From Kushneria konosiri (lineage in GTDB: Bacteria; Pseudomonadota; Gammaproteobacteria; Pseudomonadales; Halomonadaceae), in contig NZ_CP021323.1 of assembly GCF_002155145.1 (NCBI RefSeq), positions 434,001 to 498,000 of the forward strand: a stretch of 64,000 nucleotides of DNA, written 5' to 3'. This document shows, one piece after another, positions 24,192-41,416 of the stretch; within the stretch, counting starts at the first letter, position 1; each line of letters starts with the position of its first letter. The position numbers and the translations under genes are program-made. The notes below the pieces were generated by a model. That model was given only the letters and a program-made list of their open reading frames with translations, made no database searches and had not been told where the DNA came from.

Positions 24192-24195
24192 GGCC

Positions 24196-24891
24196 ATGCT
24201 GGAAACTGCTACTGTCGGGTCGAACGCCGCGAACGTACTTGCCGGGTTTGACCACGCCCGTCTCGGTCACGACGATCATGTTGTTTTCCCTGACCTGACG
24301 CTGCGCATCTCGCAGGGCGATCGTATCGCCCTGCTGGGTCGCAGCGGTGTGGGCAAGTCGACCCTGCTCGACGCGCTGCGCGTTCGGCTCGGCGACCAGG
24401 CCGCCTGGTGTCCACAGGCCAATGCTCTGGTGCCGACGCTTTCGGCCTATCACAACATTTACATGGGCCGCCTGGCCCATTACTCACGCTGGCAAAACCT
24501 GATCAATCTTTTGCGCCCCAGGCCAACCTGCTGGCAGGAGATCGGCGAGCTTGCTGGCACCCTGGGGCTGGACGGACTGCTCCGGCGCCAGGTCGATCAG
24601 CTCTCCGGCGGTCAGCAGCAGCGTGTCGCCATTGCGCGAGCGCTGTATCAAAGGCGTCCGGTCTTTATCGGAGATGAACCGGTGGCCAGCGTCGACCCCC
24701 GTCAGGGTGTTCGACTGCTGGAGATGATCAACGCCTGCCATCAGACCTGCGTGGTCGCCCTGCACCAGCGCGAACTGGCACTGGCTCATTTTGATCGCAT
24801 CATCGGTCTGGATGACGGGCACATCATCATTGATGCCCCGGCCAGCGAGCTTTCGTCACACGATCTTGACGTGCTCTATGCCACGAACTGA
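24196..24891 (+). CDS. ABC transporter ATP-binding protein (PhnC-like)
   Basis: ATPase of the importer, 231 aa. Walker A is LGRSGVGKST near residue 52, the signature is LSGGQQQRVAIARAL, and Walker B is rendered VFIGDEPVASVDP, with the H-loop in VVALHQRELAL. The ATG at 24196 begins four bases after the binding-protein stop, with AAGG just before it. Walker B ends in GDEP instead of the usual DEP after four hydrophobics, as in PhnC proteins. It overlaps the permease gene by 14 bases. Confidence 0.88.
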   Translation: MLETATVGSNAANVLAGFDHARLGHDDHVVFPDLTLRISQGDRIALLGRSGVGKSTLLDALRVRLGDQAAWCPQANALVPTLSAYHNIYMGRLAHYSRWQNLINLLRPRPTCWQEIGELAGTLGLDGLLRRQVDQLSGGQQQRVAIARALYQRRPVFIGDEPVASVDPRQGVRLLEMINACHQTCVVALHQRELALAHFDRIIGLDDGHIIIDAPASELSSHDLDVLYATN

Positions 24892-26438: not shown

Positions 26439-28094
26439 TCACCCAGGGTAAAAGATCGAGAGATTGAAGCTCTCCGGCAGGGTCGGCTGCCCGCTCTTGC
26501 GATCAACGAAGCGGACTCGAAAGCCTTTCCATGCCTGGTATTTCACCGAGCCCGAGTAGGCCGAGAGATACTCGATACCATCGTGGATGATGCCGGCATC
26601 GTCTACCGTGACCGTGATGATCGGATCACGCAGTTCCACTTCTCCCTCCGGGAAGGAGAATTCGACCTTCCCCTTGTCGACGGCCTCACAGCGCGCGAAG
26701 AAGTCGCAGCCCGGCCCATCGCCACCCTTGCGCCATTTGACGAACTGAGGGATGCCGGTCAGGGCATGACGCACCGTGCCCTTTTTATCCACCAGCGACG
26801 TCTCGCCCACTACGCCGGGGCGCCCCCGGTTCACCCGGTAATCGTCATACAATACCTTGTCATCGCCGCCGACCTGAGAAGCAAAGCGCAGGCGGCCATC
26901 CCAGACCCCCTTGTTGCCCGACTCCGTGTCGGTATCGAACACCACGTCGCCTCCAGGGCCGCTATGGCGCAGGACGATCGGGTTGGTCTGACGGGTCTTT
27001 TCGGAGCGGCTTGACTGGATCACCAGCGGTGTGGCTTCCTTCCAGGCATCCGCCTCGGCACGTATCGAGTCCGGCGACAGGCGCAACGCATTACCGGTTG
27101 AATTACGAATGACGACCTCGCCACCGTCCAGTGACACACCGCCCATGCTGCCACTGTGCTTGTCACTGGCGAAAACGTTGGTCCAGCCATAAACGCAGGT
27201 ATTGGAAGTGGCAAAGCAATCCATGAACTGCTGCCCCTTGGTTGTCCGAACACAGGGCCATGGGGACTCACCATTGTTGCGGCCTTCCCACCAGTTGCCG
27301 ATAAAGCTCGAGCGATAAATTAAACCGGCGCGAATGGCATCGCCCTTCAGAGCCTCGAAAATATTATCCTGAAAGGTCGCCCCGTAGACATCCTTATCGA
27401 AGATGATCGCATTGTCGGTATAGTTAAACTCGTTTCCAACAAAACGTGCTGTTGTGGAATTTCCCTTCTTTCTATCTTCAACCTTGACTCCGGTACGCAT
27501 GCCAACAAAGGTACAGCGCAGCAGGCTGTAATTGACCATGATTTCTTTAACAAGAATGGCCGTATTGGCAGAAGAAAAGTGGACGTTTTCCACCACAGTA
27601 TTGTAGCCATGGCTATCGATATAGATGCCTTCCCATTTTCTTTTGGCTTCACTGTTTGAGAAGCTGAGATCGCGTATTACCGGGCCATGACCGGTAAACA
27701 TGGCGTTATTACCCAGCGAATGAAAAGGAATCAGCATGGCATTGGTTTCGCGCTTGTTGCGCTGACGGCCGGGTCCAATGAGGTTCTTGCCGTTAAGATC
27801 GACCGTCTGTCCGATCGCATAGCGCCCGGGCGGTACATAAAGACTATTGACGATGCTGGAGCGCGCCGCTTTTACAAAGGCTGCCGAGCTGTCGCGCTTG
27901 CCGGTCGGGTCGGCCCCCCAGTAAATCACGTTGTTGCGGGCGGTCATGTCGAGCGCATCGGATCGCTCACGTGACTCGCTGGCCTGCGCACGCTCAGGGG
28001 CAGCCATGGCTCCCGCCATGCCTGCAACAGGCAGCAGGGCCAGTGCACGACGCATGAAGCGCCGGCGGTTGCGATCATCTGTAGAAAGCGCCAT
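26439..28094 (-). CDS. Tat-exported right-handed beta-helix protein (pectate-lyase-3 superfamily)
   Basis: A 551-aa protein with a twin-arginine-type leader (NRRRFMRRALALLPVAG), cleaved near ERAQASE. The mature part begins with NVIYWGADPTGKRDSSAAF, the classic start of the Pectate_lyase_3 (PF12708) beta-helix, followed by repeated short strands with Asn and Phe ladders. The family includes polysaccharide lyases, phage tailspikes and epimerases, so substrate and even activity are open. GGAG precedes the ATG by six bases. The core at 27340-27660 is lower in GC than its surroundings, which may mark a horizontally acquired part. It is convergent with the ABC permease and divergent from the aryl-polyene cluster. 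Confidence 0.72.
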   Translation of the reverse strand: MALSTDDRNRRRFMRRALALLPVAGMAGAMAAPERAQASESRERSDALDMTARNNVIYWGADPTGKRDSSAAFVKAARSSIVNSLYVPPGRYAIGQTVDLNGKNLIGPGRQRNKRETNAMLIPFHSLGNNAMFTGHGPVIRDLSFSNSEAKRKWEGIYIDSHGYNTVVENVHFSSANTAILVKEIMVNYSLLRCTFVGMRTGVKVEDRKKGNSTTARFVGNEFNYTDNAIIFDKDVYGATFQDNIFEALKGDAIRAGLIYRSSFIGNWWEGRNNGESPWPCVRTTKGQQFMDCFATSNTCVYGWTNVFASDKHSGSMGGVSLDGGEVVIRNSTGNALRLSPDSIRAEADAWKEATPLVIQSSRSEKTRQTNPIVLRHSGPGGDVVFDTDTESGNKGVWDGRLRFASQVGGDDKVLYDDYRVNRGRPGVVGETSLVDKKGTVRHALTGIPQFVKWRKGGDGPGCDFFARCEAVDKGKVEFSFPEGEVELRDPIITVTVDDAGIIHDGIEYLSAYSGSVKYQAWKGFRVRFVDRKSGQPTLPESFNLSIFYPG

Positions 28095-28290: not shown

Positions 28291-29019
28291 ATGGCCTGCT
28301 TATCCCATGCTGATACAGCACCACCTTTACTCTATCTCCATCGCTGGCGCGCCTGGCTGCCCGAACGCGATGGTCAGGACATGCCAGCCTGTGTGATCAC
28401 CGATGAAAAGCCTGCCGCGGCAAGCGTGCCGGCCCTGCTGCGACGACGGCTGACACCTCTGGGACGCGCCGTGTGCACGCTGCTCGGTGACATGGGCACC
28501 CATGAACGTACATCCATGCCGGTGCTGCATGCCTCACGCCACGGGGACGGCCATCGTCCACTGGACATGCTTGATACGCTTTTTGAAGGAGAGCCGCTGT
28601 CGCCTGCCCGTTTTGGCCTGTCGGTCCACAACGCCGTGCTTGGCGTCTACTCGATTGCCTTTGGCAATTACGCCTCGATGGCCGCACTGGCTGCTGCCGG
28701 TGAAGAATTCGAGGCGCTTTTAAGCGAAGCTCGAGGCTATCTGGCGGAGGGACATGACAGCGTCATGCTGGTGCTGACCGACTCACCGGTTCCCGATCGT
28801 TACCGTATTCAGACCCAGGCGCCGCAGTCGCCCTCCGCCATGCTGATGGAACTGTCGCTCTCGCCTGCTGCCGGTGCCATCGGCCTGCAGGCAACGCCTG
28901 TCGAATCCTCTGCCGACCTGCTTCCGACCGTGACACCGCCGCTGCTGGTTGACTGGCTGATGGGACGGCATGAGCTGACGACACGCGCCCCTCGGCTTGG
29001 CTGGCAGATCAACGCGTGA
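28291..29019 (+). CDS. apeC: ketosynthase-like chain-length factor of the aryl-polyene cluster (ApeC-like)
   Basis: A 242-aa protein of the Ketoacyl-synth_2 family (half the size of a normal ketosynthase). It keeps the ketosynthase-like SVHNAVLGVYSIAFGN segment, in which the active-site Cys position is not a Cys (AVLGVYS). Related proteins act in aryl-polyene assembly as partner of a full ketosynthase and set chain length. GGGAGG precedes the ATG by five bases. It opens the pigment operon. After its stop a 143-base non-coding stretch precedes the ACP gene, although all later genes in the operon are tightly packed. Confidence 0.75.
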   Translation: MACLSHADTAPPLLYLHRWRAWLPERDGQDMPACVITDEKPAAASVPALLRRRLTPLGRAVCTLLGDMGTHERTSMPVLHASRHGDGHRPLDMLDTLFEGEPLSPARFGLSVHNAVLGVYSIAFGNYASMAALAAAGEEFEALLSEARGYLAEGHDSVMLVLTDSPVPDRYRIQTQAPQSPSAMLMELSLSPAAGAIGLQATPVESSADLLPTVTPPLLVDWLMGRHELTTRAPRLGWQINA

Positions 29020-29162
29020 AGCCGGACATCACACGGCGGATAGCGCCCCAAACCATGCCCGGTTCTGGCATCATATGCCGCCCGAACATACCAGGCAGAT
29101 GACGCTCCAGCGGCGTATTCATCGTCTCGAACACGACAACAGGGACTTGAGGAGAACACCAC

Positions 29163-29438
29163 ATGGCCAATACGGCATTGACCGATCTTGAACGCGATGT
29201 TGCCAACATGATCATCGAAGCGCTGGAGCTTGAAGACATTACAGCCGACGACATCGAGCCCGAAGCGCCCCTGTTTGGCGACGGGCTGGGGCTGGACTCG
29301 ATCGATGCACTGGAGCTGGGTCTGGCGCTGCAAAAGCGTTACGGCATCCGACTGGACAGCGATGCCGAGGAAAACCGCGAGCACTTTGCCAGCCTCAGAC
29401 AGCTCAGCGCGCTGGTCGCCGAGCGTCGCAACGACTGA
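29163..29438 (+). CDS. acyl carrier protein (aryl-polyene cluster)
   Basis: A 91-aa acidic carrier protein. The phosphopantetheine-attachment Ser is in GDGLGLDSIDALELGLAL, near residue 46. GAGGAG lies eight bases before the ATG. In aryl-polyene synthesis the carrier holds the growing polyene chain for ketosynthase, ketoreductase and dehydratase. Known clusters of this kind often encode two carrier proteins in tandem; only this one is present here. Confidence 0.88.
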   Translation: MANTALTDLERDVANMIIEALELEDITADDIEPEAPLFGDGLGLDSIDALELGLALQKRYGIRLDSDAEENREHFASLRQLSALVAERRND

Positions 29439-29443
29439 GGTTC

Positions 29444-30010
29444 ATGATGGGAGCCATGCCTGCCGGACGCCCCGGAACACGTCACTGGTCATCGTCGCTT
29501 TCGATGGTGCTGTTTCCGGTGGCCCTCTGGATCGTTCTGCCGCTATGGGGTACCCGGGCCCTGCTGATCACCTTTGTCCTTCTTGCAGGCCTTCAATGGC
29601 TAGCGGGGCTTCATCGCCTGCGCTGGGCGACGGTGTTGATAATCCTGCTGGCCCTGCTGCTGGGCGGGCAGGCAGAACTGGGCATTCGGCTTTATCCGGT
29701 CATCATCAATGTCTCGCTGGCACTGGTCTTTCTGGGCAGCCTGCGCACCACGCCCCTGATCGAGCGCCTGGCGCGCCTGTCAGAGCCCGACCTGCCACCC
29801 GCAGGGGTGCGCTACACCCGTCGTGTGACCTGGGTGTGGGGCATTTTCATGACGATCAACGCCCTCGTGGCCCTGGCGCTGGCGCTTTGGGCGCCCCTGC
29901 AGGTCTGGCAGATCTACACCGGTGCCATCAGCTATCTGCTCGCGGCCCTGCTGATGGCCGGTGAATGGCTGGTGCGTCAGCGCGTTCGGCGCACAACGGT
30001 GCACGCATGA
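29444..30010 (+). CDS. membrane protein of the aryl-polyene cluster (COG4648-like)
   Basis: A 188-aa protein with about five hydrophobic segments and a conserved C-terminal half that includes RRVTWVWGIFMTINALVALA, typical of the small membrane protein that accompanies APE clusters. Its function is unknown. Several start codons are close together (29444, 29447, 29456); GGGAG precedes the last one but at only two bases, so I keep the first. The stop overlaps the next gene (ATGA). Confidence 0.75.
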   Translation: MMGAMPAGRPGTRHWSSSLSMVLFPVALWIVLPLWGTRALLITFVLLAGLQWLAGLHRLRWATVLIILLALLLGGQAELGIRLYPVIINVSLALVFLGSLRTTPLIERLARLSEPDLPPAGVRYTRRVTWVWGIFMTINALVALALALWAPLQVWQIYTGAISYLLAALLMAGEWLVRQRVRRTTVHA

Positions 30011-31728
30011 CTCATCATTTCTTCTGCGCGCCGTCACTGATCCGCTGCCCGTGGTTATCGGGTGAAGCCGACGATATCGTCGCCCAATCAGGACAGCGGG
30101 TACGCACTCGCGGTGAACTGCGCAAGGCCATTACGGCCTGGGCCAACACGCCGCTGCCGGCAGGCCGGGATGTCGCTCTTTATGACAGCGATCCCTGGCG
30201 GTTTACGACGGCTCTGCTCGGCCTCTGGCACGCCGGCCATCGGGTCTGGCTGCCCGGCGACAACCTGCCCGAAACCGTGGATCATCTGCGCCGGCGCCAT
30301 CTGACCCTGCTGGGCGAGTTTGTCGATGCGCGGGTGCCCACGGCACCGGTGACACAGACGCCGCCCGTTGCCGAACTGTCGCCCGATCAGGACGCCGTGG
30401 TGCTGTTCACCTCAGGCTCAAGCGGCGACCCTACCCCGATCTTTCGCACTCTGGGCCAGCTCGAGGCCGAGGTTGCCGCCTTTGAACGACACTGGCCGCT
30501 CGCGCAGGGGGTGGTCATCAGTCAGGTCAGTCACCAGCACACCTGGGGGCTCACCGCCGGACTTTTACGCGCGATTGCTACCTCGCACCCCTTCGGGCTC
30601 GAGATCGTGACATGGCCCGAAACGCTGGCCGAGTGGCTCACTCATCTGCCGGTCAGCGCCCTGATCAGCTCGCCGCCTCAACTTTCCCGTCTGCCGGACA
30701 GTACGACCGGCATGCCGAAGCGCGCCCCCGGTCGCATCTTCAGCGCCGCCGCCCCCTTGCCACATGACGCTGCCATGCAGGCCGAGGCATTGATGGGCAG
30801 CGAGCTCATCGAGATCTACGGCAGCTCGGAAAGTGGTGCCATTGCCTGGCGCAGGCCCTGTCGTGATACGACCTGGCAGGCCCTTGATGATGTCATGCTG
30901 CGCCGCGACAGTGGACGTATCCTTTTGCGATCAGGACGTCTGCCCGAGCCGGAGCGCTGGCACGAGCAGGCCGACCACATTGAACTGCTCGACGAGCACC
31001 CTGCCCGCTTTACCCTTCACGGGCGCGCCGACCGCATCGTCAAGGTGGCCGGCAAGCGCGTCTCACTGGAGGGGCTAGCCCGGCATATCGAGCGTTTTTC
31101 TGGCGTTACAAGCGCCCGCTGTCTGACCATCGATCACTCGGGCGGCCGCATTGGCGCCGTCGTTGCCATGACCGAAGAGAGTATTGCCCATGATCATGAC
31201 ATGCGCAGAGCCCTCATCAGCGCCCTGCGACAGCATCTGGCCAATGCCTTCGAGCCGGTGGTGCTGCCGCGCTTCTGGCGCTTTGTTCACCGTTTGCCGG
31301 TCAACGCACAGGGCAAGCTGACCCAGGCCATGGCACGCCATCTTTTTGATGATCTGGACGATCGACGGCAGCCACGCTGGCTGGACATCGAGTCCCCGAC
31401 GCTTGATCAGCGCCGGATCACGCTTGAGATCCCGGAGCGGCTGGCGGCACTAGAAGGCCACTTCCCGGGTCGCCCGATCGTGCCCGGCATTGCCCTGATT
31501 CACTGGGCGCGCCAGCAGGCCGAGCGCCTGTTCGGCGAACCGGATCGGTGGCGGGACATGCGCCGAGTACGCTTTCCCGCACCGCTGTTGCCGGGCGATC
31601 GCGCCGTCATGACCCTGACCCGTCAGCGTGATGACCTGAATATCACCGTGGCATCGCATCGGGGTCAGCATCTGCAACTGCGCCTGCTTGGTGTCGATCC
31701 GCCCACCGGCGACCGGGAGCCTTCATGA
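30007..31728 (+). CDS. fused AMP-dependent ligase and hot-dog dehydratase (ApeH-ApeI type)
   Basis: Two activities in one 573-aa chain. Residues 1-440 form an adenylating ligase: phosphate loop LFTSGSSGDPTPI, EIYGSSESGA, GRADRIVKVAGKRVSLEGL and the catalytic Lys in NAQGKLTQAM. It probably activates an aromatic starter acid such as 4-hydroxybenzoate or coumarate-like acids. Residues 460-573 form a FabA/FabZ-like hot-dog domain with GHFPGRPIVPGIALIHWA, probably a 3-hydroxyacyl-ACP dehydratase or thioesterase. In many relatives these are separate genes. The ATG at 30007 overlaps the previous stop (ATGA), and the stop overlaps the glycosyltransferase start (ATGA). Confidence 0.82.
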   Translation: MTHHFFCAPSLIRCPWLSGEADDIVAQSGQRVRTRGELRKAITAWANTPLPAGRDVALYDSDPWRFTTALLGLWHAGHRVWLPGDNLPETVDHLRRRHLTLLGEFVDARVPTAPVTQTPPVAELSPDQDAVVLFTSGSSGDPTPIFRTLGQLEAEVAAFERHWPLAQGVVISQVSHQHTWGLTAGLLRAIATSHPFGLEIVTWPETLAEWLTHLPVSALISSPPQLSRLPDSTTGMPKRAPGRIFSAAAPLPHDAAMQAEALMGSELIEIYGSSESGAIAWRRPCRDTTWQALDDVMLRRDSGRILLRSGRLPEPERWHEQADHIELLDEHPARFTLHGRADRIVKVAGKRVSLEGLARHIERFSGVTSARCLTIDHSGGRIGAVVAMTEESIAHDHDMRRALISALRQHLANAFEPVVLPRFWRFVHRLPVNAQGKLTQAMARHLFDDLDDRRQPRWLDIESPTLDQRRITLEIPERLAALEGHFPGRPIVPGIALIHWARQQAERLFGEPDRWRDMRRVRFPAPLLPGDRAVMTLTRQRDDLNITVASHRGQHLQLRLLGVDPPTGDREPS

Positions 31729-32513
31729 ATCGTCCCTCTGACCGTGCAGCGTTTACGCCCTGCGTGCTGATACCCGTCTACAACCACGAGCATGCCATCG
31801 TGGCCACCTGTGAAGGTCTGGCCGACCTGCAGCTGCCTATCGTGCTGATCGACGATGGCAGCAACGCGGCCTGCGCCGCTGTACTCGATCATCTGGCACA
31901 GGCAAGCGATGTACACCTGCTGCGCCTGCCGCACAATCGCGGCAAGGGATACGCCGTCCGCCATGGTCTTGCGCATGCTCAAGGCCTCGGGTTTACCCAT
32001 GCGCTTCAGGTCGATGCCGATGGCCAGCATGATCACGCCAGTCTGCCGCCCTTTATCGAAGCGGCCAGACAGGCCCCCGAACGGCTTTTGATCGGCTATC
32101 CGCGCTTTGACCACAGCGTGCCGCTTCACCGTTTTATCAGCCGCTACATCACCCATGTGTGGGTCTGGTTCAACACACTGTCGACGACACTGCGCGATAC
32201 GATGTGCGGCGTGCGTCTTTATCCGCTGGTTCCGCTCAATGCCATGCTCTCGCGTCGCGGCTGCGGCAATCGCATGGAATTTGATACCGAGGTGCTGGTG
32301 CGCTGGTTCTGGGCCGGTCATCCGGTCGACAACCTGCCGGTGCGGGTGACCTATCCCACCGATGGCGTGTCCCACTTTCGCCTGTTTCGGGATAACGTTT
32401 TGATGGCGCGCATGCACCTGCGCCTGACGCTGGGCATGCTGATACGACTGCCGATGCTGCTCCTCAGGCGCTGTCGGTACCGGCGCGAGGCGCAACACAA
32501 GAGCTCTTCATGA
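31725..32513 (+). CDS. family 2 glycosyltransferase of the aryl-polyene cluster
   Basis: A 262-aa GT-A glycosyltransferase: nucleotide-sugar part CVLIPVYNHEHAI near residue 12, LIDDGSNAA, and the metal-binding LQVDADGQHDHAS. The C-terminus is hydrophobic and basic (RLPMLLLRRCRYRR), which suggests membrane attachment. In APE-type clusters a GT2 of this kind is thought to link the polyene to a membrane anchor. The start overlaps the ligase stop by four bases, and its own stop overlaps the acyltransferase gene. Confidence 0.82.
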   Translation: MNRPSDRAAFTPCVLIPVYNHEHAIVATCEGLADLQLPIVLIDDGSNAACAAVLDHLAQASDVHLLRLPHNRGKGYAVRHGLAHAQGLGFTHALQVDADGQHDHASLPPFIEAARQAPERLLIGYPRFDHSVPLHRFISRYITHVWVWFNTLSTTLRDTMCGVRLYPLVPLNAMLSRRGCGNRMEFDTEVLVRWFWAGHPVDNLPVRVTYPTDGVSHFRLFRDNVLMARMHLRLTLGMLIRLPMLLLRRCRYRREAQHKSSS

Positions 32514-33472
32514 CATCATCACAACGCAAACGCACGCCGCGCCACTGGTCGGCCATCAGGGAGTCCGGCTCGCTGGGGGGCATCAAACTGATGCTCGCCA
32601 TTTACGACCGCTTCGGCGCGCGTGCCTATCAGGGCGTCCTGTTTCTGGTCGGGGTCTATTACTGGCTGCGCCGCCCGATCGCCCGACGCGCCTCACGTGA
32701 ATACCAAAAGCGTCTCAAGGCCTTTTATCCCTCGGTATCGCTGCCGCGTCTGACCACCGTGCGCCATTTCACTACCTTCGGCACGGCCATTCTGGACAAG
32801 GTGCTGGCGCTTTACGGTCGCATCGCCCCCGAGTCCATTCATATCGAGCAACGTGAAACGCTCCGGGCCGCCATCGACTCCGGTCAGGGCGGCATCATCG
32901 TGGTCACGCATCTGGGCAGCCATGAAGTCTGTCAGGCGCTGGGGCGACTGCGTCGCGACCTGAAGATGAGCGTGGTCATGCATACCCAACACGCCCAGCG
33001 CTTCAACTCCCTGTTCAACGACATCGACCGCCCCCTGTCAGTAGAGATCATCGAGGTCAGTGACATGGGGCCCGGCACGGCCCAGCGACTTCAGGCCCGC
33101 GTCACCGAGGGGGGCTTTGTGGTCATCGCCGCCGACCGCGACCCCATCGACTCAGGTGCCCGACGTCGATGGATCGATTTTCTCGGCCGACCGGCCCCTT
33201 TCCCCGAAGGGGCCTTCTGGCTGGCCATGCTGTTGCGCTGCCCGCTGTATCTGCTGGTCTGTGCCCGCCAGGGTCAATCGCATCACGTACACTTTGAATC
33301 GCTGGGGGATGCCACAAGCCTTTCACGGCGGACGCGTGAGGCCTGGATGGACAGCACCATGAAACACTTTGTCTCGCGGCTGGAACACTTCTGCTGTCGC
33401 TATCCGCTACAGTGGTTCAACTTTTACCCGTTCTGGCAGTCCGAAAAGCAAAACGCTCGTCCACCCCGTTAA
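32510..33472 (+). CDS. lysophospholipid/lipid A-type acyltransferase (LPLAT superfamily)
   Basis: A 320-aa acyltransferase related to the LpxL/LpxM branch. The catalytic box is VVTHLGSHEVCQALGRL near residue 130 (His...Glu), and an arginine-rich phosphate pocket VIAADRDPIDSGARRRW with FLGRPAPFPEGAFWLA follows. It has one N-terminal membrane segment (YQGVLFLVGVYYWLRR). In the pigment pathway it would attach acyl groups or the polyene to the lipid anchor. The ATG at 32510 overlaps the previous stop by four bases. 44 bases separate it from the LolA-like gene. Confidence 0.82.
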   Translation: MTSSQRKRTPRHWSAIRESGSLGGIKLMLAIYDRFGARAYQGVLFLVGVYYWLRRPIARRASREYQKRLKAFYPSVSLPRLTTVRHFTTFGTAILDKVLALYGRIAPESIHIEQRETLRAAIDSGQGGIIVVTHLGSHEVCQALGRLRRDLKMSVVMHTQHAQRFNSLFNDIDRPLSVEIIEVSDMGPGTAQRLQARVTEGGFVVIAADRDPIDSGARRRWIDFLGRPAPFPEGAFWLAMLLRCPLYLLVCARQGQSHHVHFESLGDATSLSRRTREAWMDSTMKHFVSRLEHFCCRYPLQWFNFYPFWQSEKQNARPPR

Positions 33473-33516
33473 ACCTCGGACACCCGCTGTCCTGAAGGCC
33501 CAGGAGCTTGAGTTAC

Positions 33517-34122
33517 ATGTCTTGTCGCACGCGTTTACGATCGCTGAGTCTTCTCGCTGTTACCCTTCCACTGTGGATGGTCGCTCTGCCGGCCAGTGCC
33601 ATGAGCCTTGAGACCCTGGCAGACCATCTGGCCACTCAGGGCGACGTCTCCGGGCGTTTCGAGCAGACCCGTTACCTGGCCGACCTGGATACCCGGATCG
33701 ATGGTCATGGTCACTACCGCTTTGAACAAAGCGATCGCGTGATCTGGTCACTGGAGTCACCGGTAGAAGAGACCATGGAGCTTTCAGGTTCAGGCATCGA
33801 GCGTAACGGTGAACACATCAACGATGATCCGGCCGGCGTGGCGACGCTGATCATGCAACTGCTCAATGGCCAGTTCTCGGCGCTGGCAGACCGCTTTGAC
33901 ATCACCCTTGAAGGCGATCAGGCGAACTGGCACGCCACGCTGGTACCAAGACAGCAGGGTCTGGCGAACTATCTCCATACCATTGACATGCACGGTGATG
34001 CGCGCCTTGAGCAGATCGACATGGCCATGGCCGACGGCGATCGCCTCGACATTCACCTGCTACCGCCGGAAGAGAGCCCCGGCACTTCTGAAACCGATGC
34101 GCAACAGGCGCCTTCATCGTAA
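33517..34122 (+). CDS. LolA-like periplasmic lipid carrier of the aryl-polyene cluster
   Basis: A 201-aa exported protein with a signal peptide ending near LPASAMS. The LolA fold is indicated by VSGRFEQTRYLADLDTRIDG, then GHYRFEQSDRVIWSLESP and a chain of alternating beta-strand residues. It would chaperone the lipid-linked pigment through the periplasm, in partnership with the MMPL exporter next door. The ATG at 33517 lies ten bases after AGGAG; the TTG at 33508 is too close to that site. The stop overlaps the exporter start (TAATG). Confidence 0.8.
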   Translation: MSCRTRLRSLSLLAVTLPLWMVALPASAMSLETLADHLATQGDVSGRFEQTRYLADLDTRIDGHGHYRFEQSDRVIWSLESPVEETMELSGSGIERNGEHINDDPAGVATLIMQLLNGQFSALADRFDITLEGDQANWHATLVPRQQGLANYLHTIDMHGDARLEQIDMAMADGDRLDIHLLPPEESPGTSETDAQQAPSS

Positions 34123-36440
34123 TGCGTCGGCTGCGACTACCGGCACTGTTATGGGGACTGGTGCTGACGACCTGTCTGATCTTCAGTATCTGGCAGCTGC
34201 TGCGCGGGGCGAGTCTTGATACCCGCATCACGGCGCTGCTGCCCGAGACCCACCAGTCTCCCGGAGTAGACCGCGCCAACGATCAGCTCAGCGCGCCCTT
34301 TACGCACCGCTTTGTGCTGCTGCTCGATGCCGAACAACCCGGCGAGGCGGCAACCCGGCTGGCAAGGGATCTTGAGGCGGCAGGCGTTGTCAGCGAACTT
34401 CGCTATCGCCCGGGTGACTATCAGCTCGACAGTTTGCTGGAAGTGCTGGGGCCGTCGCGCTATCGGCTGCTCAGCGATGATCTGCGTGCAACCATCGACA
34501 GCGGCGACACCGACGACCTGCGTCGTCAGGCGCTCGCCTCGCTGGTCATGCCGACCGGGATCGACCAGCACCCGGTGCGTGATCCCTTCGGATTGCTTAA
34601 CCGCTGGCTCGACAGCCAGCTCTCGGCCCGCTTTGATACACGAGGCGATCTGGTCACGCTCAGAGTCGATGACCGCGACCTTGTCGTCATGACCGGAACG
34701 CTTGCAGGCAACGCCTGGGATACAGGGCTGCAGGATCGTCTCACCGATGCCATCACAGGGTTTCAAAAGGCACATCCTGGGGTGCATCTATGGCGCTCCG
34801 GCATGGTCTTTCACGCAGCCGATGGCGCTCATCAGGCCAGAAGTGAAATCGGCACCATCGGGCTGGGCTCGCTGATCGGCGTCCTGCTCATTTTGCTGGT
34901 GGTGTTTCGTTCCCCGATCACGATTGCCACCCTGCTGCTGCCGCTGGCGACCGGCGGGGTGTTTGCACTGGCGATCACGCTGTGGTGGTTTCAGGGCATT
35001 CACCTGCTGACCATCGCCTTTGGCAGCAGCCTGATCGGTGTGGCCATCGATTACGCCCTGCATCTTCAGTGCGCCCGCGTACTGGCCGGCCGAACATTTC
35101 GACTGCGTACCATGTTGCCCGGGCTGGCACTCGGACTGGTCACCAGCGTCATGGCCTACGTGGTCCAGGCCTTTACGCCCATGCCCGGGCTTCGCCAGAT
35201 GGCGGTGTTTGCCGGCTGTGGTCTGATCGGTGCCTGGCTGACGGTAGTGCTATGGCTGCCCATGACGCGCGTGCGCACCACGCCTGGCACTCAAAAACTG
35301 GCGGGGCGGCTCTGGCAGGTGCTCGAACGACTTCGCGGTCGGCTCGGCCCGCGCCTGGCACTGATACTGGCCGTGATCGCCGTGACCATTGCCGGCGTTC
35401 GCCTGCAGGGCGATGACAGTCTGCGCTTGCTCAATACCTCGTCACAGCAGCTTCTCGGCGATGAAGCGCTGATTCAGCGCGAGCTCGGACGGGATACCGG
35501 CACGGTCTATCTGCTGATCACGGCCCACGACAGTGAAGGCTTTCTCGGCCGGGTGGAATCGCTTGATCCGATGCTGGATGAGCTAGTAGAGGAAGGTCAT
35601 CTGGGCGGTCATGCCAGCCTGGCCGACCATGTCCCATCCGGGTCGCGCCAGAGTGCCAACCTTGAACGCAGCCGCATGCTCTACCAGCAGCAGCTTGATC
35701 ACGTCTACACCTCGGCAGGGCTGCCGCCGGCACTTTATGAGCGCGCCATGGCCATGCTTGAACAGTCGCCGCCGCTGACGCTGGATCGATGGCTTGCAAG
35801 CCCACTGGGCGAGAGTGATCAGCGCCTGTGGCTGGGCGATATCGACAAGGGTCAGGTCGCCGGCATGATCACGCTCAATGGCGGTCTCGACAGGAGTGCG
35901 CGTCAGCGGCTGGAGAGTCTGGCACGCGGCGATGAACACATCGAACTGGTCGACCGGGTCGAGCAGATCAGCAACGTATTGGGCAAGCTGCGCCGCCAGA
36001 TTGCACAGTGGGTCGCCGGTTCCCTTGTGGTGCTGACCCTGATGCTTGCATTGCGCTACCGCTGGCGCACCTGGCGCGTCATCGCCCCGGCCGGCGGCGC
36101 CATCCTGACCGTGTTGACGCTCTATGCCCTGCTGGGCGTGCCGCTCAATCTGTTCCATCAGCTGGCGCTGCTGCTGGTGCTGGGGATCGGACTGGACGCC
36201 GGCATCTTCATGCAGGAACATCCCAGAGCGCATCATGCCTGGCTTGCGATTACGCTATCGATCGTCTCAAGCCTTCTGGCCTTTGGTCTGCTGGCCTTTA
36301 GTGCCACGCCGGCGCTGCATCATATCGGCATGACCACGCTGATCGGCCTTGCCAGTGTCTGGCTGCTCGCAGCACTGGTGCAGCCTCCCCTGTCCGGGAA
36401 TCAGACAACGACCTTCGACCATGAACATGACCATGGATAA
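34122..36440 (+). CDS. MMPL/RND-type exporter of the aryl-polyene cluster
   Basis: A 772-aa inner-membrane protein with the two-repeat RND layout. TM1 is at the N-terminus, then a periplasmic domain (about residues 30-230), five hydrophobic segments (about 240-410), a second periplasmic domain (430-620) and a last membrane bundle. The signature GSSLIGVAIDYALHL near 300 and its counterpart LVLGIGLDAGIFM near 685 each carry the membrane Asp expected to move protons. It probably extracts the finished lipid from the inner membrane for handover to the LolA-like protein. Coupled to that gene by TAATG. Confidence 0.85.
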   Translation: MRRLRLPALLWGLVLTTCLIFSIWQLLRGASLDTRITALLPETHQSPGVDRANDQLSAPFTHRFVLLLDAEQPGEAATRLARDLEAAGVVSELRYRPGDYQLDSLLEVLGPSRYRLLSDDLRATIDSGDTDDLRRQALASLVMPTGIDQHPVRDPFGLLNRWLDSQLSARFDTRGDLVTLRVDDRDLVVMTGTLAGNAWDTGLQDRLTDAITGFQKAHPGVHLWRSGMVFHAADGAHQARSEIGTIGLGSLIGVLLILLVVFRSPITIATLLLPLATGGVFALAITLWWFQGIHLLTIAFGSSLIGVAIDYALHLQCARVLAGRTFRLRTMLPGLALGLVTSVMAYVVQAFTPMPGLRQMAVFAGCGLIGAWLTVVLWLPMTRVRTTPGTQKLAGRLWQVLERLRGRLGPRLALILAVIAVTIAGVRLQGDDSLRLLNTSSQQLLGDEALIQRELGRDTGTVYLLITAHDSEGFLGRVESLDPMLDELVEEGHLGGHASLADHVPSGSRQSANLERSRMLYQQQLDHVYTSAGLPPALYERAMAMLEQSPPLTLDRWLASPLGESDQRLWLGDIDKGQVAGMITLNGGLDRSARQRLESLARGDEHIELVDRVEQISNVLGKLRRQIAQWVAGSLVVLTLMLALRYRWRTWRVIAPAGGAILTVLTLYALLGVPLNLFHQLALLLVLGIGLDAGIFMQEHPRAHHAWLAITLSIVSSLLAFGLLAFSATPALHHIGMTTLIGLASVWLLAALVQPPLSGNQTTTFDHEHDHG

Positions 36441-36444
36441 CGCC

Positions 36445-37731
36445 ATGACCACTTTCCCGTGCCGCCCTGTCGAGACCGAAATGCCGCTGCATGACACCGA
36501 GGTGGCCATCATCGGGGCAGGTCCTGCCGGCGCCGTGGCAGCCGCCATGCTGGCCGAGGCCGGCCATCGCGTCGTCGTGATCGAGGCGGCGCACTTCCCC
36601 CGTTTTTCCATCGGCGAAAGTCTGTTGCCGCAGTGTCTGATGGACCTTGAAACGGCAGGGCTGGCCGATGTGGTCTCGGATGCCGGCTATCAGATGAAAA
36701 ATGGCGCCCGTTTTGTTCGAGGCGATGCGAGGGTCGACATCGATTTTCAGGACAAGTCGAGCGAGGGGACCGGGCAGGCCTGGCAGGTCGAGCGGGCCGA
36801 CTTCGATCAGCGTCTGATCGAGGCTGCCTGTGAGCGCGGTGCCGAGGTGCATTTTGGTCAGCGGGTCACGGCTTTTGACCGTCAAACCGGGGTTCCGGTA
36901 CTGACCATTTGCAATGAGCAGGATCACTACTGGCGGCTCAGAGCCCGCTTTGTGCTCGATGCCAGCGGTCTGGCCCAGGTGCTGGGACGGCTTGAGAACA
37001 CCCTGGAAGAGACGCATCTCACACCGCGTCAGGCCTTGTTCACCCATCTATCGCTGACGCCCGAGGCCTGTCGCGAGCACGGTTTTGACCGCACCAAGAT
37101 TCAGATCGGGCTGCATCCGAAGGCCAATGTCTGGTACTGGGTGATTCCCTTTGCCAACGGCCGGGCCTCGACCGGTTTTGTGGGCGCATCTGAAGAGCTT
37201 TCACAACTGACGACTTCGGCGACCGACGTCTCCCAGCGCTTTCAGGCGTGCTTCAATGCCTTTAATGAACTGGGCGACTGGCTTGATCCCGCCACGCCTC
37301 ATCGCGATGTGGCAGCACTTGGCGGTTACAGTCGCAATGTCACCACGCTCACCGGTCCGGGGTATGCCATTCTGGGCAACGCCGGCGAGTTCCTCGACCC
37401 CATTTTTTCTTCAGGCGTCACTATCGCCGTGCGCTCGGCCTGTCTGGCCGTGCCGCTGGTCAGGGCACAGCTGGAGGGCCGGGTCGTGGACTGGCAGGAA
37501 GAGTTCGAACGCCCGCTGCGCCACGGCATCGACACCTTTCGCGCCTTTGTGGACGCCTGGTACGACGGCCGACTGCCGGCCATCATCTTTCATCCCGAGC
37601 CGCCGGCCTACCTGCGGCGCATGATCAGCGCCGTGCTGGCAGGCTACGCCTGGGATGACGACAACCCCTTCGTCAACCAGCCGCGTCAACATCTCGACAC
37701 GCTGGCCCAACTGTGTGGACACGCCGCATGA
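36445..37731 (+). CDS. flavin-dependent halogenase-like oxidoreductase (aryl-polyene cluster)
   Basis: An FAD protein of about 428 aa. The dinucleotide loop is IIGAGPAGAVAA near residue 17. The sequence then follows phenolic halogenases: FSIGESLLPQCL, GYQMKNGARFVRG (with the Lys at the place of the catalytic Lys), NVWYWVIPFANG, which fits the halogenase WxWxIP signature, and GNAGEFLDPIFSSGV. If active, it would put Br or Cl on the aryl end of the polyene, as in brominated xanthomonadins, with a partner flavin reductase that is not in the window. A monooxygenase is the alternative. The start is uncertain (36421, 36445 or 36481); I took the ATG five bases past the exporter stop. Confidence 0.75.
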   Translation: MTTFPCRPVETEMPLHDTEVAIIGAGPAGAVAAAMLAEAGHRVVVIEAAHFPRFSIGESLLPQCLMDLETAGLADVVSDAGYQMKNGARFVRGDARVDIDFQDKSSEGTGQAWQVERADFDQRLIEAACERGAEVHFGQRVTAFDRQTGVPVLTICNEQDHYWRLRARFVLDASGLAQVLGRLENTLEETHLTPRQALFTHLSLTPEACREHGFDRTKIQIGLHPKANVWYWVIPFANGRASTGFVGASEELSQLTTSATDVSQRFQACFNAFNELGDWLDPATPHRDVAALGGYSRNVTTLTGPGYAILGNAGEFLDPIFSSGVTIAVRSACLAVPLVRAQLEGRVVDWQEEFERPLRHGIDTFRAFVDAWYDGRLPAIIFHPEPPAYLRRMISAVLAGYAWDDDNPFVNQPRQHLDTLAQLCGHAA

Positions 37732-38327
37732 CCCCCACTTTTCTGCCCCGACGCCTCTGGAGCGCCGCGCTCCTGTTGATGCTGACTCTGCTGGCCGGCT
37801 GTAGTGCGCCCGCCATGGCCCCTCAATCGGCGCCCGGCTGGCAGGGTGAGACGCAAACGCTCAAGCGCAAGCTGGCCATCACGCCCTTTGATGCCTCACG
37901 CCCCGAGCAGACGCTTTTGTCGGTCATTCGCCTCTCCGAGGAAGGAATGCGCGTGGTCATCGCCACCCCCACCGGTCAAAGACTGTTCACGCTGGTGCGT
38001 GACGAGCAGGGCGCGCGCTACACCCAATCGATCATGGATGAGCCCCCCTTCCCGGCCAAATGGTTCGCCCAGCGTCTGGAATGGAGCCTGCGACCTGAAT
38101 CCGAGCTGACGGCAGCCTTCAAGGACAGTGCCTGGCGAGTGCAGGATCAGCGCTTTGAACACGGTCGGGTTCGCAAGATCCTTGACGGCGACACGCTCAT
38201 GGCTCGCATCGATACCATTGACCACCCCGTCGATCAGGCCCATGACGTGTTGACCGACTTTCAGATTGGCTATCGCATGGTCATCACGCCCTTCGGTGAC
38301 GCTCAAGACGCCGGAGGGATGCCATGA
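37728..38327 (+). CDS. DUF3261 outer-membrane-type lipoprotein (aryl-polyene cluster)
   Basis: A 199-aa lipoprotein with a clear signal and lipobox LTLLAGCS (lipidated Cys near residue 25). The rest follows the DUF3261 pattern of beta strands (LLSVIRLSEEGMRVVIAT, then GQRLFTLVRDEQ). Such lipoproteins occur in APE clusters and may receive the pigment at the outer membrane, much as LolB does for lipoproteins; that role is an inference. The ATG at 37728 overlaps the previous stop (ATGA), and the stop overlaps the ketosynthase start (ATGA). Confidence 0.82.
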   Translation: MTPTFLPRRLWSAALLLMLTLLAGCSAPAMAPQSAPGWQGETQTLKRKLAITPFDASRPEQTLLSVIRLSEEGMRVVIATPTGQRLFTLVRDEQGARYTQSIMDEPPFPAKWFAQRLEWSLRPESELTAAFKDSAWRVQDQRFEHGRVRKILDGDTLMARIDTIDHPVDQAHDVLTDFQIGYRMVITPFGDAQDAGGMP

Positions 38328-39502
38328 CGCGTGTCGACTGCCGACTCTCCTCACCGGCCGTGATCTGCAGCCTTGGCGGAGATCACGAGACCATTGTGAC
38401 GGCGCTGGCCACGGGACAGCGCGGGCTCACCGACAGCGACCGCTATACGCCCGGACGCGTGCTGGCACTCGGTGATGTCACGATGCCGCTGGTCTCCTCC
38501 GAGGGCTGGCCGGCCGAGCATGCCAGCCGCAACAACCGCCTCATTGCCACGGCGCTGAAGGCGCTTGGACCGCAGCTGGATGAGGCGCTCAAGCGCCACG
38601 CGCCGGATCGTATCGCAGTGGTCATGGGCACCAGTACCTCGGGCATATCGGAAACCGAGGCGGCCATTGCCCGCACCGGGCCCGGCAATGACTTTGACGA
38701 ACGCTATCGCTATGCCCATCAGGAGCTTGGCGCGCCGGCTCACTTCATTCGCGCACACCTTGGGCTCTCGGGGCCGGCCTGGACCCTCTCCACGGCCTGC
38801 AGTTCCGGCGCCCGTGCGCTGAGCGCGGCAAGACGCCTGCTGCTCTCCGGTCAGGCGGACGCCGTGATTGCCGGTGGTGCCGACACCCTGTGTCATCTGA
38901 CCGTGCATGGCTTTGACGCACTGGGGGCAATCAGCGATGCACCGTGTCAGCCTTTCACGGCAGATCGATGCGGCATCAACATCGGTGAGGCGGCGGCGCT
39001 CTTTATCGTGACCCGGGAGCCTGGCGGCGTTCAGCTGACCGGCTACGGAGAAAGTTCGGATGCCCATCACATTTCGGCACCGGCGCCGGATGGACATGGC
39101 GCCATCAAGGCCATCCGCCAGGCGCTCGACATGGCCGGCCGCACGCCGGAGGAGATTGACTATCTCAATCTGCACGGCACGGCGACTCCGCATAACGATG
39201 CGATGGAAGCGCTGGCCCTTCATGACGTCTTTGGCAGCCGCCAGCCGCCGGCGAGTTCGACCAAGGCGCTGACCGGCCATACGCTGGGCGCGGCAGGGGC
39301 GCTTGAAGCCGCCTTTTGCTGGCTGGCGCTGGAACACGGCTTTCTGCCGCGTCATGTCCATGATCAGCCCCTTGATCCGTCACTGATGCCACTGGCGCTG
39401 GTAAATGCCGAGACAACCGGACAACCGCGCGTGGCGCTTTCCAACGCCTTTGCCTTTGGTGGCAACAATGCCGCTCTGGTGCTGGAGCGTCACGATGGCT
39501 GA
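38324..39502 (+). CDS. apeO: 3-oxoacyl-ACP synthase of the aryl-polyene cluster (ApeO-like)
   Basis: A full-length ketosynthase of 392 aa, FabB/FabF fold. The catalytic Cys is in WTLSTACSSGARAL, the two His are in LNLHGTATPHND and TKALTGHTLGAAGAL, and the C-terminal SNAFAFGGNNAALVLER is intact. It would elongate the polyene with malonyl-ACP, as partner of the chain-length factor encoded at 28291. It overlaps the lipoprotein gene by four bases and the dehydratase gene by eight. It is the only full ketosynthase of the cluster. Confidence 0.87.
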   Translation: MTRVDCRLSSPAVICSLGGDHETIVTALATGQRGLTDSDRYTPGRVLALGDVTMPLVSSEGWPAEHASRNNRLIATALKALGPQLDEALKRHAPDRIAVVMGTSTSGISETEAAIARTGPGNDFDERYRYAHQELGAPAHFIRAHLGLSGPAWTLSTACSSGARALSAARRLLLSGQADAVIAGGADTLCHLTVHGFDALGAISDAPCQPFTADRCGINIGEAAALFIVTREPGGVQLTGYGESSDAHHISAPAPDGHGAIKAIRQALDMAGRTPEEIDYLNLHGTATPHNDAMEALALHDVFGSRQPPASSTKALTGHTLGAAGALEAAFCWLALEHGFLPRHVHDQPLDPSLMPLALVNAETTGQPRVALSNAFAFGGNNAALVLERHDG

Positions 39503-39956
39503 ATCCGGCTCAGGATCTGACTGGCCGCCCATGGCCTCACTGGTGCCACACCAGGGGCCGATGTGTTTGCTCGATCACGTCGTGAATGCCGATGAGCGCC
39601 ACATCGTGGCGGCGGTCATCTCCTCATCCAACAGCCTGTTTGCCGATGAAAGGGGGATTCCGGTACAGGTGGCACTGGAGTGGATGGCCCAGGCCTCGGC
39701 GGCCTGGTCAACCCTGCAGCCCCGTGAGGGCGGCACGCCCAGACAGGGCATGCTGCTGGGCGCCCGTCGGTTCGAGGCCAATATTGATCACCTGGCCCTT
39801 GATCAGCCTCTGGAGGTCAGGGTCAGTGTGGATACCGTCGCCGACAGTGGCCTGGGGACCTTTGAAGGGGTGCTCTACCGAGCCGGTAATACCTGCGAAA
39901 ACGACTGGCTGGCCAAAGCGACGCTGAGCGTTTTACAGACTCCGACCGACGCCTGA
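39495..39956 (+). CDS. apeP: hot-dog fold 3-hydroxyacyl-ACP dehydratase (ApeP-like)
   Basis: A 153-aa single hot-dog domain. It shows LVPHQGPMCLLDHVV near residue 14 and VALEWMAQASAAW near 60, the pattern of FabA-like ApeP proteins, in which the His after Pro is catalytic. It removes water after the ketoreductase step, so that each cycle adds one conjugated double bond. The ATG at 39495 lies inside the ketosynthase gene (eight-base overlap). Confidence 0.82.
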   Translation: MAESGSGSDWPPMASLVPHQGPMCLLDHVVNADERHIVAAVISSSNSLFADERGIPVQVALEWMAQASAAWSTLQPREGGTPRQGMLLGARRFEANIDHLALDQPLEVRVSVDTVADSGLGTFEGVLYRAGNTCENDWLAKATLSVLQTPTDA

Positions 39957-40010
39957 TCGCTTTTCCTTCACCGCCTACGAACATACTTTCCAACGCTATC
40001 GGAAGATGAC

Positions 40011-40733
40011 ATGCCACAGACCATCCTGATTACGGGCGCCAGTCGGGGCATCGGCCGGGCAGCCGCCCTGCGCCTGGCGCGTGACGGCTTTGATATCGTC
40101 GTGCACTACCGCCACAGCGAGGCCCAGGCTCGCGCCGTTGTCGATGAGATTACGGCCATGGGACGCCAGGCGCGCCTGCTGTCGTTCGATGTCGGAGACC
40201 GCGATGAAGCGCGCGCATCTCTTGAGGCCGATATCGCCGAGCACGGGGCCTACCATGGCGTAATACTCAACGCCGGCTTTCATCAGGATGCGCCCTTTCC
40301 CGGCATGTCCGATGAACAGTGGGACAGCGTGCTCAACGTGGATCTGGGCGGGTTTTACAATGTCCTCAGGCCGCTGGTGATGCCCATGATTCAGCGCCGA
40401 AAGCCCGGGCGCATCGTGGTACTCTCCTCCGCCGCCGGCGTGATCGGCAATCGCGGCCAGGTCAACTATGGCGCGGCCAAGGGCGGCCTGATTGCCGCCA
40501 GCAAGTCCCTGGCGCTTGAGCTGGCCAAAAGAAGGATCACGGTGAACTGTATTGCGCCGGGCTGGGTCAATACCGACATGACCGATGACATCGATGTGGA
40601 CATCAAAAAAATCGTCCCGATGCAGCGCATGGGGGACGCCGAGGAGGTAGCCGGCGTCATCAGCTTTTTATGTTCGGATGACAGCAGCTACGTGACTCGC
40701 CAGGTCATTGCCGTCAACGGTGGACTGTTCTGA
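40011..40733 (+). CDS. apeQ: 3-oxoacyl-ACP reductase (FabG-like, ApeQ-like)
   Basis: A 240-aa short-chain dehydrogenase. Cofactor motif ITGASRGIGRAAA at residues 7-19, NAG in ILNAGFHQD, catalytic Ser in VVLSSAAGVIGN and YGAAKGG with the Tyr-x3-Lys pair, and C-terminal ITVNCIAPGWVNTDM. It reduces the beta-keto group after each condensation. 54 bases separate it from the dehydratase gene. Confidence 0.87.
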   Translation: MPQTILITGASRGIGRAAALRLARDGFDIVVHYRHSEAQARAVVDEITAMGRQARLLSFDVGDRDEARASLEADIAEHGAYHGVILNAGFHQDAPFPGMSDEQWDSVLNVDLGGFYNVLRPLVMPMIQRRKPGRIVVLSSAAGVIGNRGQVNYGAAKGGLIAASKSLALELAKRRITVNCIAPGWVNTDMTDDIDVDIKKIVPMQRMGDAEEVAGVISFLCSDDSSYVTRQVIAVNGGLF

Positions 40734-40816: not shown

Positions 40817-41416
40817 ATGACGTTCAAGGCAGCATTGTATGGCTGGACGGCCACGACCCTTCGCACGCTGGATCATCACGGTGTCCGACTGCGTTATCCC
40901 TACCGTGATCGCATCATGTTCGAAAACCACATTCTGCCGGCCATCGCCGGCGATGACAGCATTAGACGAGTGCTGATGGTGGGTTGCGGCTGGTATACCC
41001 ACCACTATCCGGCGCTGCTTGGGGATACGGAGGTCACCACCATCGACCTGGACGCCGCCAAGCGACCCTTTGGCGGCGACAGCCATATCGTGGGCAACCT
41101 GACCACACTTGGCGATCATATCCCTGACGAAGGGCTCGACGCCGTACTGTGCAACGGTGTGCTGGGCTGGGGGCTGAACGAGCCGGCCGATGTCGAACAG
41201 GCCTTTACCGCCTGCATCGACTGCCTGCGTCCCGGTGGATTACTGCTGTTGGGCTGGAATAACCACCCCCCTTATAACCGGGTCAGCCCCGAAGATATTC
41301 CGGCATTTGCCGGCCTTGAGCCCGTCAGGGTGCCGGGACTTGATGCGCACCGGATTGTGGCCCTGCCGCGAAACCAGCACTGTTTTCAGGCCTTTCAAAA
41401 ACCGTTTTCAGACTGA
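40817..41416 (+). CDS. small SAM-dependent methyltransferase-like protein
   Basis: A 199-aa protein with a class I methyltransferase core: motif I as VLMVGCGWYTHHYPALL, an acidic residue after beta 2 in TTIDLDAA, and LDAVLCNGVLGWGLN, with CLRPGGLLLLGWNNHPPY as the motif III region. GAGG precedes the ATG by six bases. Its position directly behind the ketoreductase gene suggests a methyl-transfer step on the aryl head group, since aryl polyenes are often O- or C-methylated. The sequence is unlike the larger methyltransferase usual in these clusters. The link to the pigment is an inference from position. Confidence 0.65.
   Translation: MTFKAALYGWTATTLRTLDHHGVRLRYPYRDRIMFENHILPAIAGDDSIRRVLMVGCGWYTHHYPALLGDTEVTTIDLDAAKRPFGGDSHIVGNLTTLGDHIPDEGLDAVLCNGVLGWGLNEPADVEQAFTACIDCLRPGGLLLLGWNNHPPYNRVSPEDIPAFAGLEPVRVPGLDAHRIVALPRNQHCFQAFQKPFSD

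What the first reader, a model, noticed from the sequence alone, without database searches (positions are those of the whole stretch)
36445..37731. Halogenase-like flavoenzyme inside an aryl-polyene cluster of a likely halophile
The protein carries WYWVIP (fits WxWxIP of flavin-dependent halogenases), a Lys at the expected catalytic place (GYQMKNGA), GESLLP and GNAGEFLDPIFSSGV. Xanthomonadins, relatives of aryl polyenes, are brominated. A saline habitat rich in bromide would make a brominated or chlorinated pigment plausible. Halogenase activity itself is an inference, because monooxygenases of the same fold exist.
Basis: partly seen in the sequence, partly recalled or inferred. Interest (0 to 1): 0.72.

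Follow-up and report, generated by a model that had tools for sequence, protein, structure and literature searches.

The report
Halogenase-like tailoring enzyme of pigment cluster
A halophilic bacterium's pigment gene cluster carries an untested enzyme with the hallmarks of enzymes that attach chlorine or bromine, and close relatives of it sit in the same kind of cluster in many other bacteria, including ones from soil.

Summary
Window 36445-37731 encodes a 428-aa flavoprotein with GxGxxG, GESLLP, Lys85, WYWVIP and FLDPIFSSG. Lys85 aligns with the catalytic-Lys column of five solved halogenases. Lys85, WxWxIP and FxxPxxSxG are invariant in 45 of 45 aryl-polyene-type rows (42 distinct) and are lost or changed in related QhpG and LodB/GoxB-like oxygenases. 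The AlphaFold model (pLDDT 91) matches uncharacterised 3nix, then halogenases at ranks 7-40, before any monooxygenase. The gene follows exporter ApeM in an aryl-polyene cluster; 76 of 76 family genomes with the gene also have ApeM, 74 within 409 bp.

'Halogenase-like tailoring enzyme' is well supported; activity, halide and substrate are untested. The saline/bromide argument fails: close relatives sit in Cupriavidus, Caballeronia and a soil Acinetobacter. It is also not in the clade (29-35% identical) whose gene order resembles the arcuflavin/xanthomonadin clusters. Its own clade, with 3nix, has no characterised member that I found and carries Asn where every compared halogenase has Asp (GN for GD). 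Cautions: curated CmlS (halogenase) and QhpG (oxygenase) profiles score it almost equally, and arcuflavin is reported non-brominated despite a 'halogenase' gene in its cluster.

The parts
36445..37731 (+). halogenase-like flavoprotein P0001 (428 aa), the finding
36514..36531 (+). GAGPAG, FAD-binding GxGxxG
36613..36630 (+). GESLLP
36697..36699 (+). codon of Lys85, candidate catalytic lysine
   Evidence: invariant in 45 of 45 APE-type rows; aligned with Lys of five solved halogenases
37132..37149 (+). WYWVIP (WxWxIP)
   Evidence: 45 of 45 rows
37375..37419 (+). GNAGEFLDPIFSSGV: GN in place of GD, and FxxPxxSxG
   Evidence: Asn in 45 of 45 APE-type rows, Asp in 14 of 14 other rows and in the five halogenases
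28291..29019 (+). ApeC-like ketosynthase / chain length factor
   Evidence: Pfam Ketoacyl-synt_2 1.5e-43
29163..29438 (+). acyl carrier protein
   Evidence: Pfam PP-binding 2.1e-09, NF006617 over cut-off
29444..30010 (+). COG4648-type membrane protein, ApeG-like
   Evidence: no Pfam or NCBIfam hit; by position, and relatives of it sit at the same place in other APE clusters
29965..31728 (+). fused AMP-ligase (ApeH-like) and ApeI-like dehydratase
   Evidence: Pfam AMP-binding 1.2e-14 and ApeI-like 2.3e-07
31725..32513 (+). glycosyltransferase family 2, ApeJ-like
32510..33472 (+). LpxL-type acyltransferase
33508..34122 (+). LolA-like carrier, ApeL-like
34122..36440 (+). MMPL/RND exporter, ApeM-like
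   Evidence: Pfam MMPL 2.4e-06; present in 77 of 151 family genomes
37713..38327 (+). DUF3261, ApeN-like
38324..39502 (+). ketosynthase, ApeO-like
39405..39956 (+). dehydratase, ApeP-like
40011..40733 (+). ketoreductase, ApeQ-like
   Evidence: TIGR01831 over cut-off
40817..41416 (+). class I methyltransferase, perhaps part of the cluster
   Evidence: Pfam Methyltransf_11 1.1e-06; at the same place in Kushneria loci L045 and L046 only, of 30 loci examined

Best explanation
The protein is a two-component-type, FADH2-dependent halogenase-like enzyme that tailors the aryl polyene. Inferred mechanism: reduced flavin supplied by a separate reductase reacts with O2 to the C4a-hydroperoxide; chloride or bromide attacks it to give HOX; HOX travels through the tunnel lined by WxWxIP and FxxPxxSxG to Lys85, which holds it for attack by an electron-rich ring. 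The ring is most likely the 4-hydroxyphenyl head group (or an adjacent polyene carbon) while bound to the cluster's acyl carrier protein. Shown: fold, motifs, invariance of Lys85, place in the cluster, that it is an accessory gene and not a core gene. Inferred: FADH2 use, halide, substrate, timing.
For: Lys85, WxWxIP, FxxPxxSxG invariant in 45 of 45 APE-type rows, 42 distinct; Lys85 is the only one of the protein's four lysines that is invariant. Same residues in five solved halogenases; in 4 of 4 proteins over the QhpG cut-off and 3 of 3 LodB/GoxB-like ones the Lys and the IP of WxWxIP are missing. Foldseek: 3nix ranks 1-6, halogenases 7-40, first monooxygenase 41, of the 50 rows shown. After 3nix the nearest sequences are ChlB4, Mpy16, PltA, CndH; that PltA and Mpy16 act on carrier-bound pyrrole is recalled. 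Co-occurrence: 76 of 76 family genomes with the gene have ApeM, 74 within 409 bp, 2 at about 7 kb. Accessory: absent from the E. coli cluster table of 18 genes, from otherwise canonical clusters L088 and L094 and from L084, where ApeM directly adjoins ApeN. One flavin reductase gene (PF01613) elsewhere in the genome. Literature: clusters with a 'halogenase' gene in Xanthomonas make brominated pigment; Lysobacter without one makes none (PMC3691225 passages).
Against: No member of its own clade has a known activity that I found. NCBIfam profiles hardly choose: CmlS 128.9 bits, QhpG 119.3, geranylgeranyl-reductase superfamily 102.9, all below their cut-offs. Asn312 replaces the Asp that every compared halogenase has. 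Arcuflavin is reported as a non-brominated aryl heptaene although arcA is annotated a halogenase (PMC3949708 passages); arcA is probably of the other clade. No flavin reductase in the cluster. One QhpG-search hit, L064, turned out to be a Lys/WxWxIP protein of the other clade, so the QhpG model does not by itself separate the two kinds.
Confidence: 0.55

Rival explanations
1. It is a flavin monooxygenase of halogenase ancestry that hydroxylates the aryl head group or its precursor.
For: QhpG, a dihydroxylase, has the same fold and a WxW in the same channel (PMC7876137 passages), and its profile scores P0001 within 10 bits of CmlS. The GN-for-GD change is fixed in the clade.
Against: QhpG and LodB/GoxB-like rows lack the Lys and the IP of WxWxIP; a review proposes that WxWxIP screens the substrate from the flavin and so prevents hydroxylation (PMC10696468 passages). 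Tree: APE clade on the halogenase side of a 99% split, though long branches meet there.
Confidence: 0.22
2. It is a redox enzyme acting on the polyene chain, such as a C=C reductase or isomerase of the geranylgeranyl-reductase superfamily kind.
For: TIGR02032 GG-red-SF 2.6e-29 and MenJ 1.3e-22 hits; the substrate is a conjugated polyene.
Against: GGR is far behind halogenases in sequence (3oz2 E 1.7e-9 against 1.2e-37 for Mpy16) and absent from the 50 best structure matches shown; no role for an invariant Lys.
Confidence: 0.1
3. It is a halogenase descendant without present halogenating activity, kept as a structural or redox partner of the exporter or synthase.
For: Tight adjacency to ApeM; arcuflavin non-brominated.
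Against: Catalytic-type residues are invariant across clades separated by long branches and dN/dS is low, which speaks for selection on catalysis.
Confidence: 0.08

Closest known systems
3nix, flavoprotein/dehydrogenase of Cytophaga hutchinsonii (structural genomics)
   Same: Same clade (SH-aLRT 100), about 38% identity, TM 0.90, same Lys, WxWxIP, GN and FxxPxxSxG
   Different: No function assigned; other phylum
Carrier-protein halogenases PltA, Mpy16, ChlB4 (5dbj, 5buk, 7fco)
   Same: Next nearest in sequence and fold; Lys, WxWxIP, FVDPIFSSG; related C-terminal segment
   Different: About 25-27% identity; GD not GN; different pathway
CndH, CmlS, RadH, 8zop (FasV)
   Same: Fold and, where aligned (CndH, 8zop), motifs
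   Different: 22-25% identity; other substrates
ArcA / xanthomonadin-cluster halogenase genes
   Same: Halogenase-like flavoprotein in an aryl-polyene-type cluster
   Different: Rows with arcuflavin-like surroundings (L057 and kin) form another clade, 29-35% identical, with GD; the named proteins themselves were not compared
QhpG, LodB, GoxB
   Same: Halogenase-like fold (QhpG); weak profile hits
   Different: No Lys, no IP of WxWxIP, altered FxxPxxSxG

Membership tests
Flavin-dependent halogenases | GR2-type FAD fold with GxGxxG | tested here: met
Flavin-dependent halogenases | WxWxIP | tested here: met
   residues 230-235; 45 of 45 APE-type rows
Flavin-dependent halogenases | catalytic Lys | tested here: met
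   Lys85 by alignment with five solved halogenases; its role was not tested
Flavin-dependent halogenases | FxxPxxSxG | tested here: met
   316-324, 45 of 45 rows
Flavin-dependent halogenases | falls inside a clade of proven halogenases | tested here: inconclusive
   own clade with 3nix, on the halogenase side of the QhpG/LodB split; quick tree with long branches
Flavin-dependent halogenases | passes a curated halogenase model | tested here: not met
   CmlS model 128.9 bits, cut-off 900, a single-enzyme equivalog; Pfam Trp_halogenase is passed, 82.2 bits against 21
Flavin-dependent halogenases | FADH2- and halide-dependent C-X bond formation | not testable with these tools
   needs assay or mass spectrometry
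Arcuflavin/xanthomonadin-cluster halogenase type | same clade as rows with MipA, acyltransferase, GT2 neighbours | tested here: not met
   Xanthomonas and Azoarcus proteins not in hand
QhpG/LodB/GoxB oxygenases | passes curated cut-off; lacks Lys and IP of WxWxIP | tested here: not met
   QhpG 119.3 of 240, LodB 70.4 and GoxB 80.4 of 400; has Lys and WxWxIP
Aryl-polyene cluster component | lies among ape genes, conserved across lineages | tested here: met
   24 of 26 close-type loci hold five or more core gene kinds, 18 have ApeM within 500 bp

The most novel reading that the evidence does not exclude
The APE-type clade is an unrecognised family of carrier-protein-dependent phenol halogenases with a GN signature, and halogenation of the aryl head group is a widespread alternative to its methylation, so that many aryl polyenes from ordinary, non-saline habitats are in fact chlorinated.
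Probability: 0.28. Interest if true: 0.68.

Novelty: new member of a known kind. Interest (0 to 1): 0.42.

Why it matters
Aryl-polyene clusters are described as one of the most widespread families of bacterial biosynthetic clusters (PMC8253772, passages and section 5 seen). If this clade halogenates, the published picture of plain or methylated head groups is incomplete for many lineages, and a simple isotope-pattern measurement would show it. The clade also offers a natural experiment: sister clusters with and without the gene (L084, L088, L094 against L048, L049).

Tried and rejected
Habitat explanation (bromide-rich saline niche): rejected, because close-type hits include non-saline organisms. 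Kinship with the xanthomonadin type: rejected for the rows examined. Flavin reductase in the cluster as support: none among the cluster genes annotated; one PF01613 gene elsewhere, which 13 of 14 control genomes also have, so it says little. Aromatic ammonia-lyase: not found in the genome (the same query finds L048, L049 and L084 at 57-58%), so a 4-hydroxybenzoate start is likelier than a cinnamate-type one (inference). ApeR: no copy above 40% identity in the genome, while relatives carry it at 49-66%.

Literature: 10 searches. 'aryl polyene'+'halogenase' 11 papers, 'xanthomonadin'+'halogenase' 4, 'flexirubin'+'halogenase' 2, '3NIX' 11 (the listing shows battery and ceramics papers). None listed gave an activity for this clade; subscription papers are not held. 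Whether the Vibrio fischeri cluster carries the gene could not be checked. QhpG search in the class at 1e-60 found nothing, in the phylum at 1e-30 it did. In one search I took wrong frames for five control rows and corrected them. Rows left out of the tree: L001, L004, L005, L006, L012, L015, L027, L031, L045, L046 (near copies or truncated); L051 matched over 84 residues only and was not aligned. Foldseek libraries 'viral' and a second AlphaFold job were not used. No model coordinates were available, so Lys-to-tunnel distances were not measured.

Full report
What is there. The ORF 36445-37731 (+) encodes a 428-aa protein with Pfam Trp_halogenase and FAD_binding_3 matches. It is a single-copy gene in its genome (one match), conserved in 10 of 10 genomes of the genus and under purifying selection.

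Where it sits. The gene lies 4 bases after the stop of an MMPL/RND exporter (ApeM-like) and overlaps a DUF3261 gene (ApeN-like), in a collinear block from 28291 to 40733 that holds chain length factor, ACP, a fused AMP-ligase/dehydratase, glycosyltransferase, acyltransferase, LolA, exporter, the flavoprotein, DUF3261, ketosynthase, dehydratase and ketoreductase. That is an aryl-polyene cluster by comparison with the E. coli table (PMC8253772 section 5) and with annotated Pseudoalteromonas clusters, where an 'NAD(P)/FAD-dependent oxidoreductase' lies between the exporter and DUF3261. The window's cluster is reduced: no ammonia-lyase, thioesterase, lysophospholipid acyltransferase, second ACP or ApeR was seen in it, and the genome search found no ammonia-lyase and no ApeR-like protein above 40%.

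How tightly the gene goes with the cluster. In a family sample of 151 genomes, 76 have the flavoprotein and 77 have ApeM. The 76 are a subset of the 77; 74 have the two genes within 409 bp, two at about 7 kb. The one exception, G091 (L084), has ApeM directly followed by DUF3261 and no flavoprotein. In the class sample 17 of 369 genomes, own included, carry the close type; of the other 16, 12 also have an ApeM match at 1e-30. Of 30 loci read for context, 26 hold the close type; 24 of these 26 have five or more core gene kinds and 18 have ApeM within 500 bp. The two without a recognisable cluster are Aureispira (L056) and a short contig (L086). Of 12 loci fetched because they have ApeM but no close-type flavoprotein, two (L088, L094) are otherwise canonical aryl-polyene clusters and three carry a 23-31% flavoprotein. 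So the gene is an accessory, tailoring-type member of these clusters and not part of the core.

What kind of protein. By sequence the best solved relative is 3nix (E 3.9e-86), then Mpy16, ChlB4, 8zop, PltA, CndH, RadH, CmlS (profile search). The AlphaFold model (35 sequences, mean pLDDT 91.3, pTM 0.92) gives 3nix at Foldseek ranks 1-6 and only halogenases at ranks 7-40; monooxygenases start at rank 41 of the 50 rows shown, 1981 matches in all. The tree of 63 rows puts 36 close-type rows with 3nix in one clade (SH-aLRT 100), 13 rows of arcuflavin-like kind in another (99), and QhpG and LodB/GoxB-like rows beyond a 99 split. It is a quick tree, drawn with a midpoint root, and the program warns that long branches meet there.

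The discriminating residues. A review names the strictly conserved Lys and WxWxIP as halogenase features and proposes that WxWxIP prevents hydroxylation (PMC10696468, passages); a RadH paper adds the Fx.Px.Sx.G element (PMC10377541, passages). In the close type Lys85, W230, W232, I234, P235, F316, P319, S322 and G324 are invariant in 45 of 45 rows, of which 42 are distinct; the 14 other rows share them. The control: 4 of 4 proteins over the QhpG cut-off and 3 of 3 proteins whose best NCBIfam models are LodB/GoxB (below the curated cut-offs) lack the Lys and the IP, and have F316 or S322 changed. An eighth control row, L064, proved to be of the arcuflavin-like kind and has the halogenase residues. 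Against this, curated profiles score P0001 almost equally as CmlS (128.9 bits) and QhpG (119.3 bits), none over its cut-off, and Asn312 stands where all 14 other rows and the five halogenases have Asp. I do not know what that change does.

What the literature allows. Passages of PMC3691225: xanthomonadin clusters of two Xanthomonas species have a halogenase gene and the pigments are brominated; Lysobacter has no such gene and no bromine pattern. The E. coli cluster has no flavoprotein, and its head group is described as methylated. Passages of PMC3949708: Azoarcus has arcA, annotated halogenase, and its pigment is proposed to be a non-brominated aryl heptaene. Three of these four fit 'gene means halogen', one does not; whether bromide was present in the Azoarcus medium I did not see. 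All of these concern genes of the other clade or absence of a gene, so none tests this protein.

Judgement. The halogenase-like reading is the best supported (0.55), a hydroxylase of halogenase ancestry is the main rival (0.22). The individual gene is a new member of a known kind; the clade to which it belongs is widespread, unnamed in NCBIfam release 20 among the best 25 of 99 matches shown, and uncharacterised as far as my searches go.

Noticed in passing
window 28291-40733: Reduced aryl-polyene cluster: ammonia-lyase, thioesterase, ApeD, second ACP and ApeR not seen in the cluster; same in Kushneria loci L045 and L046. How the chain is started without ApeR is open.
   Followed up: partly
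window 29965-31728: AMP-ligase (ApeH) and ApeI dehydratase are fused in one ORF.
   Followed up: no
window 40817-41416: Small methyltransferase after the ketoreductase, kept in two Kushneria loci (85-88%) and not detected in the other 28 loci examined.
   Followed up: partly
L084 (G091 C1 562010-582000): Same-family aryl-polyene cluster that lacks the flavoprotein, ApeM adjoining ApeN: a natural knock-out.
   Followed up: partly
L014 (G082): Same-genus copy reported with one in-frame TGA in the flavoprotein match.
   Followed up: no
   Followed up: no
window 23340-24888: Phosphonate-type ABC transporter: binding protein and ATPase next to the cluster.
   Followed up: no
window 26439-28094, minus strand: Pectate-lyase-like, probably exported protein just upstream of the cluster.
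   Followed up: no
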